Shown: positions 53,996 to 59,989 of the stretch, piece by piece
Layout: the number at the start of each line of letters is the position of its first letter
Position numbering within the stretch: the first letter of the stretch is position 1
Source of the DNA: Desulfovibrio sp. Huiquan2017
GTDB taxonomy: Bacteria > Desulfobacterota > Desulfovibrionia > Desulfovibrionales > Desulfovibrionaceae
Length of the DNA stretch: 64,000 nt
Assembly: GCF_017351175.1 (NCBI RefSeq)
Contig: NZ_JAFMPN010000017.1
Span: forward strand, 1-64,000
Direction: 5' to 3'
Program-made: the position numbers and the translations under genes
Notes under the pieces: model-generated
Told to the model about the DNA's origin: nothing
Databases searched by the model: none
The model's input: the letters and a program-made list of their open reading frames with translations, nothing else

Positions 53996-54026
53996 AAAAA
54001 AGGGCGCACCGTCACACGATGCGCCC
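53996..54026 (-). terminator. terminator of the bd-like operon
   Basis: Minus strand: GGGCGCA / TGCGCCC stem with an 11-base loop followed by TTTTTTGCGG, 22 bases past the stop of the eight-heme protein gene. Confidence 0.82.
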
Positions 54027-54048
54027 TGTCGTTCGAGGTGGTCGGGCC

Positions 54049-56559
54049 TTATTCCAGGCCCATGCCCGGGTGGTGGGCCGGATAGTCCATGGCCTCCTTG
54101 TGGCAGACCGTGCAGTTGCCGCCCGCGCCCAGGGGCTGCGCCTCGTCCATGTATTGCAGGGGCAACACGTTGTCGCGCGGCGTGGCCGGGTAGATGGCGT
54201 GGGGCGAGCCGTGGCATGCGCCGCAGTGCATGGCGTCCATCTCGTCGCGCCGGGCGGCGAACAGGGAGTCCGCGTCCTTGGTCCAGACGTTGAAGGCCGA
54301 ATCCGTCTCGGGGGGGGCGAAGTCCTTGTGGCAGGTCAGGCAGTCGGGCTCGTTGACCCATGGCCTACGTGGTTTGACGGCCTGCTTGTTGGACATGGTC
54401 CTGGGGGTTATCCGGGCCAGGATGCGGCCCGCGCCGGGCACGTTCCGGTCCATTTCCGCCTTGAGCAGGGAGATGGCCAGGTCTTCGATCATGCCGTGGC
54501 AGTCGGTGCAGGTGAAGCCCACGGCTTCGTGCTGTCCGCGCAGGGTCGATTGCGGATGGCACTTGAGGCAGGAGCTTTCGGCCCCGCGTCCGGCCATGTA
54601 GATGGCGTGCACGCCGTGGATGGCGGCGGACAGGTTGGGCTTGTCGGCGTTGCCCTCGGCGTTCTGGATGGGGTCGTCGTGGCAGGTGATGCATTCGACC
54701 ACGCCCTTGGTCTCGGCCAGGTGGGTGGAGTTCATGCGGTCGTGGGTGGCCAGGATGTTCTCCACCGTGGCCGAGGTCACGCCCGAGCCGTCCCGCTTCC
54801 ATTCGCCGCTGTGACAGTTGAAGCAGCCCATCTGGTCCGAGGTGGGCGCGGCGAGCCGGGCCGTGGCCAGGACCGCGCCGGAGGCGTCCCGGGCGGTCAG
54901 GGTAACGATGGGCAGGGGGTTGTATTCACCGTCCTTGGCATAGGGCGGGATGGCTACTTTGGCCTCGAAGCGGCCCGCGTCCGCGTTGGGTTCGAGGCTG
55001 CCGGTCAGGGTCTTGTCGTCCTGGTCGGGCTCGATGGCGTAGTCGATGGTCACATCGTCCATAACCCGCTCGGGCGAGGGATCGCGGCGCACGAGCTGGG
55101 CGCGGATGACGTTGGACGGCGGCAGCAGGGTCCATTTGTCGTTTTGGGAGAAGAAGCCCATGCCGCGCGAACACCAGGCCACCAGGGTGTATTCCGAGGT
55201 CTCGGGGTCGAAGGGCGCGGACGCGGGTTCGGCCTGTTCCGGGACCGGCGCGGCCTCCGCCGGGGCGTAGCCGTTCAGATCCTCGGCGACGTACCGGGCC
55301 AGGGCCATGCGTTCCTCGGAGGTGCCGATGAACGGGGGCATGTATTTGTTCAGTTTGCCCATGCCGGTCAGGAAGGCGTCCATGCCGTTCACATCGTACT
55401 GGACGGTGCGTTTGGTGATCTCGTTCATGGGGCCGTGTATCGAATGGCAGGCCGAGCATTCGAGCTGGAAGAGGAACGCGCCTGCGATCTTGACGTTGGC
55501 GTCGGTGATGCCCTGGGCCAGTTCGGGCGGGGCCCACTTGGCCGAGGCGATGGCCCCCTTCTGGTTGATGACCGGCACATGGGCCTTGAGGATGGAGGAG
55601 GAATAGACCGTATCCCAGATGAGGTACGGCTTGCGGCCCGCCTCGCGGATGAATTCGAAGGAGCCGAACAGCCCCTGACCGACCAGCAGGACCACCAGGG
55701 CCATGGTGAAGGACAGGGATTTGGGGGTCTTCAGGGCCAGGAGCAGGCCACCGATGAGGGTGGCCGTGCCGAAGATCCAGAAGTACTGCATGAAGTGGGC
55801 GACGCGGTTGGACTTGTAGACGATCATTTCGTACTGCTCGGGCGGCATGGCGGCCACGTACCACCAACCGGACAGGAACACGGCCAGTACGCCGAGCACG
55901 GTCCAGGCCGAGCAGACCCGGACGGTGCGCAGCCGGGTGGCCTCGTCCGGGATACGCGTGGCCGTGACGAAGCCGAACAGGCCCGCGCATACGGCCGAGA
56001 AAAAGGTGCGGAAGACCAGGGACGGCCAGAAGGACGGGTTGAAGAAGCCGTGCCAGAAGTCCTTGGTCTCCAGCCACTGGCCCGGAGTGAGCATGAAGCC
56101 GATGATCCCGTTGATCAGGAAGAGCGACAGCCAGCCGAACAGGAAGTAGAGCCAGCCCACGATCATGTGGTCGCGGCGGTCCATCTCGTTCCAGGCATAA
56201 TAGTAGATGATCAGGGCCAGGATTTCGCCCAGGAAGCAGACCCATTCGGCCGCCCATCCGAAGACGAACTGGTGGATGAGGGTGATGGTCGCCTCGGGCG
56301 CGAGCAGGGCCACGGTCAGCCAGATGGCCACGCCGGACACGCCGCCGAAGGCCATGGTCAGGAGCAGGAAGAAGCGGGTGTGCTTCCTGGCGTACTCAAG
56401 CAGGTGGATGTTGTTCGATTTGTAGGCCGCCCGTTCGGTCAGGACCAGGAACAGGCCGCCGCCCACGGCGAAGTGGGCCACGTAGACGTGCAGGGTGGCG
56501 ATGACGGCGATCCAGAATCCGCCGCCGAGAGTGGTCAGGTGCCAGATGGGATATTCCAT
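54049..56559 (-). CDS. cytochrome bd-superfamily protein fused to eight c-type heme sites
   Basis: An 836-residue protein. Residues 1-345 form about eight membrane helices with CydA-like features: His24/His29 in the TLHVYVAHF helix, and a GRKPY motif (308-312, in EAGRKPYLIWD) that corresponds to the GRQPW motif of quinol oxidases; the long Q-loop of true CydA is missing. From 368 a single c-type heme site (CSACH) sits in a small cytochrome domain, and from 579 onwards seven more CxxCH sites occur (579, 623, 664, 684, 740, 779, 816), making eight. The bd-superfamily is known to include such cytochrome c-linked oxygen-reductase branches (OR-C). It should move electrons between a quinone or cytochrome pool and oxygen or another acceptor; the direction is unknown. 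It is transcribed after the gene at 56563. Confidence 0.85.
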   Translation of the reverse strand: MEYPIWHLTTLGGGFWIAVIATLHVYVAHFAVGGGLFLVLTERAAYKSNNIHLLEYARKHTRFFLLLTMAFGGVSGVAIWLTVALLAPEATITLIHQFVFGWAAEWVCFLGEILALIIYYYAWNEMDRRDHMIVGWLYFLFGWLSLFLINGIIGFMLTPGQWLETKDFWHGFFNPSFWPSLVFRTFFSAVCAGLFGFVTATRIPDEATRLRTVRVCSAWTVLGVLAVFLSGWWYVAAMPPEQYEMIVYKSNRVAHFMQYFWIFGTATLIGGLLLALKTPKSLSFTMALVVLLVGQGLFGSFEFIREAGRKPYLIWDTVYSSSILKAHVPVINQKGAIASAKWAPPELAQGITDANVKIAGAFLFQLECSACHSIHGPMNEITKRTVQYDVNGMDAFLTGMGKLNKYMPPFIGTSEERMALARYVAEDLNGYAPAEAAPVPEQAEPASAPFDPETSEYTLVAWCSRGMGFFSQNDKWTLLPPSNVIRAQLVRRDPSPERVMDDVTIDYAIEPDQDDKTLTGSLEPNADAGRFEAKVAIPPYAKDGEYNPLPIVTLTARDASGAVLATARLAAPTSDQMGCFNCHSGEWKRDGSGVTSATVENILATHDRMNSTHLAETKGVVECITCHDDPIQNAEGNADKPNLSAAIHGVHAIYMAGRGAESSCLKCHPQSTLRGQHEAVGFTCTDCHGMIEDLAISLLKAEMDRNVPGAGRILARITPRTMSNKQAVKPRRPWVNEPDCLTCHKDFAPPETDSAFNVWTKDADSLFAARRDEMDAMHCGACHGSPHAIYPATPRDNVLPLQYMDEAQPLGAGGNCTVCHKEAMDYPAHHPGMGLE

Positions 56560-56562
56560 GAT

Positions 56563-57606
56563 CTACGCCCTCCCCTGCCGCGATTTGAAATAGAGTTTGA
56601 GCATGTAGGCCATGAGTCCTCCGCCCGCGACCACGAAGCCGAGGAAGAGATAGAAAGAGCCGTATTGGTTGGTCACCGGCACGGATTCAATTTTGAACCA
56701 AGGTGCCAGGTACAGGGTTCGCACCCAGTGCCGGGCGCAGGCCATGAAGAATACGGTGATGACCGCCCAGACGGCCGTCCGTCGAGGGTCGCCGTGGAAT
56801 CCCCGGTAGAGCATGACGCCCGCCGACAAAAGCGCGGCGGCGAGGGTCAGGCTGGCTGGCAGGTTTTTGCCCATGAAAGCCAGCAATACGCGGTCGGGCA
56901 GGGCCACGAGGAACCAGACGCCCACGGCCAGATTGACCACGGTCGCCCGAAAGAACCACGTCATGCCGGTCTCCACGAATCCGTCATTGCCCTGGTGCCG
57001 TCCGAGCAGGGCCACGAACAGGCCGCCCACGGCCAGGGCCCCGACCATCATGTGCAGGAACCGGGGGTACAGGGCCGGGTCGCGCCAGTTGAGGAATCCC
57101 GCGTAGCCGTCGAAATAAGAATGCCAGCCGCCGGGCTCGAGCATGAGGGTCATGTTGTTGGAGAACATGAACCCCACATAGACGATGCCGAGCACGGACG
57201 AGCCGAACAGGGCGAGCCGCATGCCCGCGCCCATGGTCTCGAATTTGAACTTGTACAGGTAGAAGCCGTAGTATGAATAAAGGAGCACGAAGACCACGGC
57301 CAGCCACCAGCCGCCCATGAGCACGGAGCTGACGTAGTCGAAATTGCCGTAGTTGACCTGAAGGAAGAGCAGCGGGGCGACACCCAGGTTGATGGTCAGG
57401 GCGAGCAGGGGGGGCAGCTTCATGCCCACTTCGCGGATGAGCCCGCTGCGGCCGCGCACCGCCTGGACCAGGCCGATGGCCGCGGACCCGAGCATGGCGT
57501 TCATGAACAACACATGAGCCGCAAAGGTGACGATGAGCAGAACATCGAACCAGGCCCAATGAATGGGTATGGGTTCGGCCATGGGAATCAGGGAAGCGGG
57601 ATTCAC
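56563..57606 (-). CDS. membrane partner subunit of the bd-like protein
   Basis: A 347-residue protein with about eight or nine transmembrane helices (HWAWFDVLLIVTFAAHVLFMNAM near the N-terminus; FLHMMVGALAVGGLFVALLG in the middle; a last helix before the C-terminus). Two His residues lie in helices (AAHVLF and FLHMMV) and could ligate heme. I recognise no formal family, but the coupling to the bd-like gene (3-base gap) suggests it is the second membrane subunit, in the place of CydB/CydA'. It starts with GTG at 57606 after an AAGGAG site. Confidence 0.78.
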   Translation of the reverse strand: MNPASLIPMAEPIPIHWAWFDVLLIVTFAAHVLFMNAMLGSAAIGLVQAVRGRSGLIREVGMKLPPLLALTINLGVAPLLFLQVNYGNFDYVSSVLMGGWWLAVVFVLLYSYYGFYLYKFKFETMGAGMRLALFGSSVLGIVYVGFMFSNNMTLMLEPGGWHSYFDGYAGFLNWRDPALYPRFLHMMVGALAVGGLFVALLGRHQGNDGFVETGMTWFFRATVVNLAVGVWFLVALPDRVLLAFMGKNLPASLTLAAALLSAGVMLYRGFHGDPRRTAVWAVITVFFMACARHWVRTLYLAPWFKIESVPVTNQYGSFYLFLGFVVAGGGLMAYMLKLYFKSRQGRA

Positions 57607-57793: not shown

Positions 57794-59989
57794 ATGAAGA
57801 TAGGACCCAAGCTGACCCTTCTCGGCACCGCCTTGGTAGGCACCACGGCAGCCGGAATCCTCGCCATTCTTTTGTGGCAGAGCTCCAAAGTTTCCGAAAC
57901 CCTGACAACCCATTTCGACCTTCAGGCCCAGGCCGAGATGACTCTGGCCGTGGGCGACGCCCGCAACCTGCTTGATACCCAACACGCCACTCTGGGAAAA
58001 CAGCTCGAAAGCGACATGCGCGTAGTCTTGGATATGGAGCGGCGCGGCGGCGGGCTGGACCTGTTGCCCGAGACCGTGGAATGGCAGGCGATCAACCAGA
58101 TCAGCAAGGCCTCTTCCTCCGTGACCCTGCCCCGGATGGCTCTGGGGGCCACCTGGCTCGGCCGGAACAGCGATCCGAACACGCCCACTCCCCTGGTGGA
58201 CGAGATCATGAAGCTGACAGGGACCACCTGCACGGTCTTCCAGACCATGAACGAGAACGGCGACCTGTTGCGCGTGGCCACCAATATTCTCAAGACCGAC
58301 GGCAAACGGGCCGTGGGCACCTTCATCCCCGGCTCTTCGCCCGTGGCCCGGACCGTCAAATCCGGCGAGACCTACCGGGGCACGGCCTTCGTGGTCAACG
58401 CCTGGTATCTGACCCAGTACCGGCCCATCAGGGATGCGTCCGGCAAGATCATCGGCTGCCTGTACGTGGGCATCCTCCAGGAGGGCGTGGAGCAGTTGCG
58501 CCAGGCCTTCAAGAACGTGCGGCTTGGCCGCACGGGCTTTTTGACCGTGTTCGGCGGCTCCGGTTCGTCCGAGGGTGTGATCAAGATGCACAGGGACGAC
58601 AAGGCCGAGGGCGGCAACATCCTGACCGAGACCGACGCTTCGGGCGGGCCCGTGTACAAGAATCTTGCGGCCAAGGCCAAGGAAGCGGGCGGTGAGGTGG
58701 TCACCATCGAGACCGAGCTGGCCTCGCCCCAGGGGCCCCGCCCGACCATCCTCAGCGCCGTATACTTCAAGCCCTGGGATTGGGTTATCCTCGGCACCGG
58801 CTATCTCGATGAATTCATGGAGGGCGAGCGGGCCACCTCGCGCGCGCTCGACGCCACCAATTGGTGGACCGTGGGCATCGGCGGAGTCATGCTCCTGCTG
58901 GGCATGTTCGCCTTTATCGTCTTTGCCCGCAAACTGAGCGGGACCATCGGCGCGACCGTAACGGTCATGGGCGCCATCAACCAGGGCGACCTGGACGTGC
59001 CCCGGCTTCCCGCGCGTACGGGCCGCATGCGCGACGAGATGGACGAGCTCGGCGAAGCGGTCAACGCCATGGGCGAAAAGTTGCGTGAGGTGGTCTCCCA
59101 GGTCCAGGCGGCGGCCCAGTCCGTGACCCTGGGCAGCGGCGAACTGACCGGTACCTCCCAGGCCCTGGCCGAAGGCGCGGCCAACCAGGCCAGCGCCGTG
59201 GAGGAGGTCTCCGCCTCCATGGAAGAGATGACCTCCAACATCGAACAGAACACGGACCACGCCCGGGAAACCGAGGAGATCGCCCGCCAGGCCGCGAGCG
59301 ACGCCGAAGAGGGCGGCCAGTCCGTGAACCAGACCATGGAGGCCATGCGGCAGATCGCGGACAAGATCGCCATCATCGAGGAGATCGCGCGCCAGACCAA
59401 CCTCCTTGCCCTCAATGCGGCCATCGAGGCCGCCCGGGCGGGTGAACACGGCAAGGGCTTTGCCGTGGTCGCCGCCGAGGTGCGCAAGCTGGCCGAGCGC
59501 AGCGGCGTGGCCGCGGCCGAGATCAGCGAACTGTCCGCCCATTCCGTGAGCATCGCCGAACAGGCCGGAGCCATGCTCGACAAGATGGTCCCGGACATCA
59601 CCCGTACCGCCGAGCTCATTCGCGAGATATCCCAGAGTTCCGACGAGCAGAACGCGGGAGCCACCCAGATCAAGGACGCGGTCCTCGAATTGGATCGTGT
59701 GGTCCAGCAGAACGCCGCCGAGTCCGAACACGTGGCCGCCGCTTCCCAGACCCTGTCCTCATATGCCCTGCAACTGCAACGGATTATCGGCTACTTCCGC
59801 CTGGCAGCCGCGTCCGCCGTTGCGCCCCGGGCCGAGGTCTCGGTCAAGCGGCCCAAGGCCAAACCCCTGTCCGCGCATTCTGCTCCGTCCGATGCGCCCA
59901 AGGCCGTTCCCCCGGCTTCCCCTTCCGCGCCTCAAGACGCGGGCGGGATGGATCTGGACATGGACGGCGACGAGTTCGAGAAATTCTAA
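57794..59989 (+). CDS. methyl-accepting chemotaxis protein with Cache sensor
   Basis: A 731-residue receptor. First membrane helix at about 7-27, a periplasmic Cache-type sensor (about 30-350, with the paired-domain pattern [21 protein letters not shown] and [23 protein letters not shown]), second helix at about 357-377, a HAMP region, then a cytoplasmic signalling coiled coil with the tip [24 protein letters not shown] at about 530 and a disordered C-terminal tail. It should bind a small ligand outside and control CheA. The start follows an AGAGGGGGAA site. Ligand unknown. Confidence 0.93.

What the first reader, a model, noticed from the sequence alone, without database searches (positions are those of the whole stretch)
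54049..57606. Bd-like oxidase branch with eight c-type hemes and a novel partner
The larger protein joins a CydA-like membrane half (GRKPY in place of GRQPW; no Q-loop) to eight CxxCH sites, which is a rare combination. The partner has no clear family. This may be an alternative oxygen or electron-transfer complex that links the membrane to a periplasmic multiheme wire, and it stands near oxygen-defence genes.
Basis: partly seen in the sequence, partly recalled or inferred. Interest (0 to 1): 0.78.

Follow-up and report, generated by a model that had tools for sequence, protein, structure and literature searches.

The report
Oxidase-like pair with eight-heme wire
Two neighbouring genes in a sulphate-reducer-type bacterium encode what looks like an oxygen-consuming membrane enzyme of the cytochrome bd kind that takes its electrons from a built-in chain of eight haems instead of from quinol, and the same gene pair is common in related anaerobes.

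Summary
Window 54049-56559 (-) encodes 836 aa: a CydA-like membrane half plus eight CxxCH; 56563-57606 (-) encodes a 347-aa membrane partner. The CydA relation is supported by Pfam, profile comparison and a predicted structure (Z about 32 over 315 residues). Residues matching the high-spin haem/O2 site of E. coli CydA (H19, E99, E107, E445, R448) are kept almost without exception in 148 non-redundant rows; the b558 ligand H186 and the Q-loop are missing. The partner is not unrelated: it has the bd fold, is a paralogue of the big protein's membrane half, and keeps H19- and H186-like histidines in all three clades. The combination is not rare: the pair is common in Desulfobacterota, usually adjacent, and co-occurs even where unlinked. 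In some genomes the seven-haem part is a separate downstream gene. Oxygen-defence genes lie beside 17 of 129 loci and 0 of 36 control regions, a query set chosen after looking. Best reading: a bd-type O2 reductase fed by periplasmic cytochromes, probably for oxygen defence; it fits the OR-C family as recalled, which I could not test. Catalysis, haem content and electron direction are inferred.

The parts
56563..57606 (-). Partner: 347 aa, nine long helices in the model, CydA-like paralogue; keeps H31 (=H19), H185 (=H186), M288, R182, R292
54049..56559 (-). Large protein: 836 aa, CydA-like membrane half fused to c-haem domains
55588..56559 (-). CydA-like membrane half, residues 1-324; H24, E105, E112, E306, R309 = E. 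coli H19, E99, E107, E445, R448; the H186 position is F183
55624..55638 (-). GRKPY motif (residues 308-312), counterpart of GRQPW
55276..55506 (-). Mono-haem cytochrome c domain, residues 352-428 (C368-xx-CH; M407 conserved)
   Evidence: below Pfam cut-off; Z about 6
54835..55197 (-). Beta-strand domain, residues 455-575, no firm relative (Z about 6)
54052..54825 (-). Seven-haem domain, residues 579-836; a separate gene in some relatives
54001..54027 (-). Terminator-like hairpin with T-run just after the large gene's stop
   Evidence: consensus match only

Best explanation
A two-subunit, bd-type oxygen reductase that oxidises periplasmic c-type cytochromes instead of quinol. Electrons enter the seven-haem periplasmic domain, pass through the mono-haem cytochrome c domain to the two high-spin haems in the membrane half of the large protein, and reduce O2 with protons taken up from the cytoplasm past the E99/E107 counterparts. 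The partner, a second CydA-like subunit, stands where CydB or CydA' would stand and probably holds a low-spin b haem. The likely role is O2 removal in anaerobes that meet oxygen. Shown: sequence anatomy, homology, predicted folds, ligand conservation, linkage and co-occurrence, split and fused versions, oxygen-defence neighbours in part of the family. Inferred: haem binding, complex formation, O2 as substrate, electron direction, donor, physiological role.
For: bd fold of residues 6-324 at Z 30-32, rmsd 2.8-3.1 A, against CydA-type chains. H24 in 130 of 131 main-clade rows (one gap), E105 and E112 in 131 of 131, E306 in 129 of 131 (two gaps), R309 in 130 of 131 (one gap); all kept in 10 of 10 distant and 7 of 7 C13-type rows (one of the 148 rows is the window's own copy). 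The residue at the H186 position is never His in these rows. The partner is a paralogue of the membrane half (hhalign E 4.5e-11 local, 2.4e-14 global) and keeps H185 in 137/137, 10/10 and 7/7 rows. The two genes are side by side within 150 bases in 101 of the 103 loci that hold both, and the large protein was found elsewhere in the genome in 5 of 5 unlinked cases searched. The fused C-terminal part equals the separate seven-haem protein of split loci (L138: 40%, E 4.5e-100). Seven non-motif histidines are conserved in 82-83 of 83 rows, enough for His/His ligation of all seven haems. Neighbours from the oxygen-defence set in 12 of 113 main, 5 of 9 distant, 0 of 7 C13-type loci and 0 of 36 control regions (Fisher 0.025 for 17/129). 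Three draft genomes (G205, G206, G210) carry the pair and show no canonical CydB.
Against: No biochemical data and no spectra. 101 of 113 main-clade loci show no oxygen-defence neighbour, and 4 of the 12 that do hold the partner alone. The neighbour families were chosen after seeing L107, L201 and L203, and loci are related to one another, so the p-values are too good; flavodiiron neighbours alone give p 0.07. In the C13 type no such neighbour was seen. The commonest recurrent upstream neighbours in Desulfovibrionaceae look like housekeeping genes (enolase and pantothenate kinase by recalled motifs). The genome also has canonical CydAB. A long periplasmic wire could also carry electrons outward.
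Confidence: 0.58

Rival explanations
1. Electron exit: the partner's b haem oxidises menaquinol and the chain passes electrons outward through the multihaem part to periplasmic or extracellular acceptors; O2 is not the substrate.
For: Partner keeps a b558-like histidine; the seven-haem part matches MtrC/MtrF-type and, below cut-off, DmsE-type profiles; relatives carry names such as Desulfuromonas, Desulfuromusa and Desulfobulbus.
Against: The O2-site residues are conserved; the distant and C13-type clades carry a single haem on the CydA-like protein; oxygen-defence neighbours in part of the family.
Confidence: 0.16
2. A quinol-fed O2 reductase: quinol is oxidised at the partner's b haem, and the multihaem part is an additional entry or exit branch.
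For: Partner H185 aligns with E. coli H186, and R182, M288, R292 are kept.
Against: The large protein lacks the Q-loop and the 347-aa partner has no long loop between its helices; 76 of 93 complete loci keep exactly eight c-haem motifs.
Confidence: 0.12
3. The same machine, but acting on NO or peroxide instead of O2.
For: Flavodiiron proteins, peroxiredoxin and superoxide reductase lie beside some copies.
Against: No feature points to NO or peroxide in particular; the conserved set is that of the O2 site of CydA.
Confidence: 0.08

Closest known systems
OR-C family of the cytochrome bd superfamily (Murali et al. 2021, ISME J; paper not held, recalled; the class is named in passages of PMC10839748, PMC13189123, PMC11707229)
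   Same: CydA-like, no quinol site; c-haem as I recall the family
   Different: Could not be compared; whether the eight-haem fusion and the partner are described there is unknown to me
OR-N type CydAA' of nitrite oxidisers (passages in PMC10839748 and PMC12342949)
   Same: Two CydA-like subunits proposed to form one complex; cytochrome c proposed as donor
   Different: No fused multihaem domain is mentioned in the passages I saw; not aligned here
Canonical cytochrome bd (CydAB; E. coli, Geobacillus, mycobacteria)
   Same: Fold and the residues of the high-spin haem pair
   Different: Large protein lacks H186 and the Q-loop; the second subunit is CydA-like by descent; c-haems added
Second cluster of the same genome (G000:C13, L044)
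   Same: CydA-like protein plus partner-like protein with the same conserved residues
   Different: One c-haem motif on the CydA-like protein, two on the partner-like one, and a separate two-haem cytochrome upstream

Membership tests
Cytochrome bd superfamily, CydA-like | Profile match to PF01654 over the curated cut-off | tested here: met
   35.3 bits v 26.2, residues 17-233
Cytochrome bd superfamily, CydA-like | CydA fold | tested here: met
   The ten best Foldseek hits are CydA-type chains; Z 30-32 over 306-316 residues; predicted model, pLDDT 84
Cytochrome bd superfamily, CydA-like | Residues of the two high-spin haems (H19, E99, E107, E445, R448; roles recalled) | tested here: met
qOR (quinol-oxidising bd) | Q-loop and b558 ligand H186 in the CydA subunit | tested here: not met
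   H186 position is F183 and never His in 148 rows; no counterpart of the Q-loop
qOR (quinol-oxidising bd) | CydB partner | tested here: inconclusive
   Partner v CydB profile E 0.0023, probability 13; v the large protein E 4.5e-11; the partner's best Foldseek hit is 9r2g_D, by its length probably a subunit II, while CydA chains lead by Z
OR-C | Placement in the OR-C clade or match to the published OR-C profile | not testable with these tools
   Paper and profiles not held
OR-C | No quinol site | tested here: met
   (large protein)
OR-C | Bound c-type haem (feature recalled) | tested here: met
   C368, C371 and M407 in 129 of 131 main rows, 10/10 and 7/7 in the other clades; motif only, attachment untested
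OR-N CydAA' | Placement with OR-N1/OR-N2 sequences | not tested
   No named OR-N sequence was fetched

The most novel reading that the evidence does not exclude
A bd-superfamily oxygen reductase in which two CydA paralogues have divided the haem ligands between them: the catalytic subunit keeps the O2-reducing haem pair and lost b558, the partner keeps the b558-type histidine without the conserved acids of helix 3, and an eight-haem wire fused to the catalytic subunit connects O2 reduction straight to the periplasmic or extracellular cytochrome pool of strict anaerobes.
Probability: 0.43. Interest if true: 0.72.

Novelty: new variant of a known kind. Interest (0 to 1): 0.55.

Why it matters
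Sulphate reducers and their relatives are called strict anaerobes, yet many consume oxygen. A widespread bd-type enzyme that takes electrons from periplasmic cytochromes would give them an O2 sink that bypasses the quinone pool and could draw on hydrogenases or even extracellular donors. It would also be a good case for how the bd superfamily evolved: duplication of CydA, division of haem sites, and repeated splitting or fusion of a multihaem cytochrome.

Tried and rejected
Literature: the defining OR-C paper was asked for by DOI twice and is not held. Eight full-text searches showed no paper that, from titles, starts of abstracts or passages seen, describes a CydA-like protein with eight c-haems or this partner. 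This is no proof of absence: listings were capped (for example 20 of 116 and 15 of 409 papers), the library lacks most subscription papers, and supplementary files were not open.

Partner as CydB by descent: profile comparison gives only E 0.0023 (probability 13), against 0.0077 (5) for CydA and 4.5e-11 for the large protein's membrane half; kept open as a structural role. PF11466 (Doppel) on the partner is a 14-residue match under the cut-off, taken as chance.

Conserved operon partners other than the two genes: clustering of neighbours in 114 loci gave, besides the pair and frames antisense to it, at most 38 loci; those looked at more closely are synteny with enolase- and pantothenate-kinase-like genes or antisense to the partner. 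The window's chemoreceptor has a relative in 6 of 120 loci, all named Pseudodesulfovibrio; the protease in none.

A global setting of the profile aligner put the last helix of the large protein on another stretch of E. coli CydA. I kept the local alignment because the structural match runs to E. coli residues 462-463.

Four control regions (L254-L257) were fetched but dropped before the count because they lie on the same contigs close to a target.

Fold rows for residues 455-575 (P19/FetP and others) and 352-428 (cd1 nitrite reductase), all at Z about 6, are too weak to name a family. After the bd chains come alternative complex III and polysulphide reductase, at Z 17-19 for the large protein and 15-17 for the partner.

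Full report
WHAT IS THERE. The two genes lie on the minus strand at 56563-57606 (347 aa, GTG start) and 54049-56559 (836 aa, ATG start), three bases apart. A terminator-like hairpin with a T-run lies at 54027-54001, just after the second stop (consensus match only, 10 such sites in the region v 3.6 in shuffles). Eight CxxCH motifs are present; 20,000 shuffled copies of the protein never gave more than two.

THE LARGE PROTEIN. Pfam finds CydA (residues 17-233, over the cut-off) and, in the C-terminal half, MtrC/MtrF-type, cytochrome c3 and c7 families over their cut-offs. The structure model (pLDDT 84) matches CydA-type chains over residues 6-324 with Z 30-32 and rmsd 2.8-3.1 A; the next families, alternative complex III and polysulphide reductase, reach Z 17-19. 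The local profile alignment to canonical CydA (probability 95, E 3.9e-8) puts H24 on E. coli H19, E105 on E99, E112 on E107, E306 on E445 and R309 on R448; a global setting misplaces the last helix, but the structural match runs to E. coli residue 462-463, in agreement with the local one. Which residue serves which haem in E. coli is recalled; titles in the reference list of PMC8951039 name E99, E107 and E445. The b558 ligand H186 falls on F183, next to a nearly invariant Arg, and the E. coli Q-loop stretch has no counterpart.

CONSERVATION. After making 162 rows non-redundant, 148 remained, one of them the window's own copy. In 131 main-clade rows H24 is kept in 130 (one gap), E105 and E112 in 131, E302, R305 and E306 in 129 (two gaps), R309 in 130 (one gap); C368 and C371 in 129 (two gaps) and M407 in 129. 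All are kept in 10 of 10 rows of a distant clade (label; one of them, L193, joins the third clade's side of the tree) and 7 of 7 rows of a third clade that includes a second cluster of the window's own genome.

THE PERIPLASMIC PART. After the eighth helix come a mono-haem cytochrome c domain, a beta domain without firm kin, and seven further haem motifs. I aligned 83 sequences: the window, 78 relatives picked for having at least eight motifs, and four separate seven-haem proteins. The seven C-terminal motifs are complete in all 83, partly by that choice. Independent of the choice, H606, H648, H651, H677, H787, H829 and H830 are kept in 82 or 83. Seven such histidines would suffice for His/His ligation of all seven haems, as in a wire with no open site; that is inference. 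An eighth, H694, is present in 79 of 83 but is Leu in the window.

SPLIT AND FUSED FORMS. In L034, L035, L036, L039, L055, L056, L094, L110 and L138 the CydA-like protein ends after the mono-haem domain and a separate multihaem cytochrome lies directly downstream; the L094 copy runs off the contig. Six complete ones, with 7 to 10 motifs, align with the C-terminal part of the window protein at 33-41% identity, E 1.4e-56 to 4.5e-100. For L147 no such gene was found. On the tree the 7 mono-haem main-clade rows are nested among eight-haem rows and need at least three changes; 11 rows cut by locus ends or broken were left unclear. So splitting probably happened more than once; the direction of each event was not tested. 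Of 93 loci with both genes and no edge, 76 have exactly eight motifs, 4 have seven, 12 one, 1 none. L057, L085 and L120 look like broken frames, since matches to the seven-haem part continue in another frame.

THE PARTNER. It passes no family cut-off and has no PDB match by sequence up to E 10. Its model (pLDDT 90.8, nine long helices) matches CydA-type chains at Z 25-27 over 322-332 residues. By Foldseek its best hit is 9r2g_D (E 1.5e-4), by its length probably a subunit II, followed by 9r2g_A and other bd chains of both subunits, so the fold alone does not separate CydA from CydB. By profile it is a paralogue of the large protein's membrane half (E 4.5e-11 local, 2.4e-14 global), while its direct match to canonical CydA (0.0077, probability 5) and CydB (0.0023, probability 13) is weak. 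The matches H31=H19 and H185=H186 are seen in the weak direct alignment and, in agreement, through the large protein (H31 on H24, H185 on F183). H31, H185, M288, R182 and R292 are kept in 136-137 of 137 main rows, 10 of 10 distant and 7 of 7 third-clade rows. In helix 3, where CydA has E99 and E107, the partner has no invariant acid: column 119, at the helix end, is acidic in 67 of 138 main rows and 4 of 7 third-clade rows, and column 116 in 7 of 7 third-clade rows. The position matching E445 is mixed in the main clade (D 66, H 32, A 20, E 9 and others of 138), Glu in 9 of 10 distant rows and Gln in 7 of 7 third-clade rows, which fits descent from a CydA-like ancestor.

LINKAGE. Of 121 loci examined, the window among them, 103 hold both genes by my thresholds; in 101 the gap is within 150 bases, in two it is 163 and 223. 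Seven are third-clade loci whose partner falls under the score threshold. Eleven show the partner without a scored large gene: four end at a contig edge (L083, L121, L130, L145), one has only the start of the large gene (L079), and six are orphans (L104, L107, L123, L140, L146, L148). Five of the six orphan genomes were searched (not that of L146); 5 of 5 have the large protein elsewhere, in open frames of 884-903 aa. So the two co-occur even when unlinked.

SPREAD. Partner relatives: 139 of 199 genomes of the class, 15 of them only at E above 1e-20; 73 of 395 in a phylum sample that includes family members and the weaker type; 431 loci in the named collection by one pattern, of which the best 80 were kept, mostly named as Desulfobacterota or Deltaproteobacteria. 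The window's nearest named relatives are Pseudodesulfovibrio.

NEIGHBOURS. Rubrerythrin, superoxide reductase, ferritin, flavodiiron protein, peroxiredoxin or canonical CydAB occur in 12 of 113 main loci (4 of these 12 are orphan-partner loci), 5 of 9 distant loci, 0 of 7 third-type loci and 0 of 36 control regions of 468 kb in total. Pfam confirmed families in L107, L201 and L203. The set was chosen after seeing those loci. Fisher gives 0.025 for 17 of 129 v 0 of 36, 0.0001 for the distant clade alone, and 0.07 for flavodiiron proteins alone; choice after looking and relatedness make these values optimistic. In the window itself there is one peroxiredoxin some 3.4 kb away, and its neighbourhood is not conserved.

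MECHANISM. The most likely reading is electron entry from periplasmic cytochromes, passage through the wire and the mono-haem domain, O2 reduction at the haem pair of the membrane half, with the partner as second subunit that probably holds a b haem. The genome has canonical CydAB as well, so the pair would add a quinone-independent route. Three draft genomes with the pair (G205, G206, G210; 94-98% complete) show no canonical CydB, and their PF01654 matches are all weak; G227 and others have both.

AGAINST WHAT IS KNOWN. Passages in PMC10839748, PMC13189123 and PMC11707229 give the division into qOR, OR-C and OR-N, and PMC10839748 says that OR-N enzymes probably use cytochrome c and may pair two CydA-like subunits. 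Membership in OR-C is likely from recall, but untested. A review notes that bd oxidase scavenges O2 in Desulfovibrio vulgaris (PMC8951039, passage). Hence 'new variant of a known kind'; if the original OR-C paper already shows this architecture, it drops to a known one.

Noticed in passing
G000:C13, locus L044 3718-7513 (-): Second divergent cluster in the same genome: two-haem cytochrome, CydA-like protein with one c-haem motif, partner-like protein with two; same conserved residues.
   Followed up: partly
window 57794-59986 (+): Cache-domain chemoreceptor gene divergent from the pair; a close relative lies beside the pair in 6 of 120 loci, all named Pseudodesulfovibrio.
   Followed up: partly
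window 54478-54480, residue 694 of the large protein: A histidine conserved in 79 of 83 aligned sequences is Leu here; one haem may be ligated differently.
   Followed up: no
L107, L123, L140, L148: Orphan partner genes lie downstream of a flavodiiron gene, with a cytochrome c3-type gene and a HEAT-repeat gene recurring nearby.
   Followed up: partly
L207, L208, L211, L213, L214, L215: Long CydA-like proteins (about 580-630 aa) followed by genes for two-haem cytochromes; they may be the OR-N kind of nitrite oxidisers (recalled resemblance).
   Followed up: no
L120 (Desulfosarcina widdelii), L085 (Salidesulfovibrio brasiliensis): The large gene looks frame-broken in these deposited genomes; not resolved whether real or sequencing error.
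   Followed up: no
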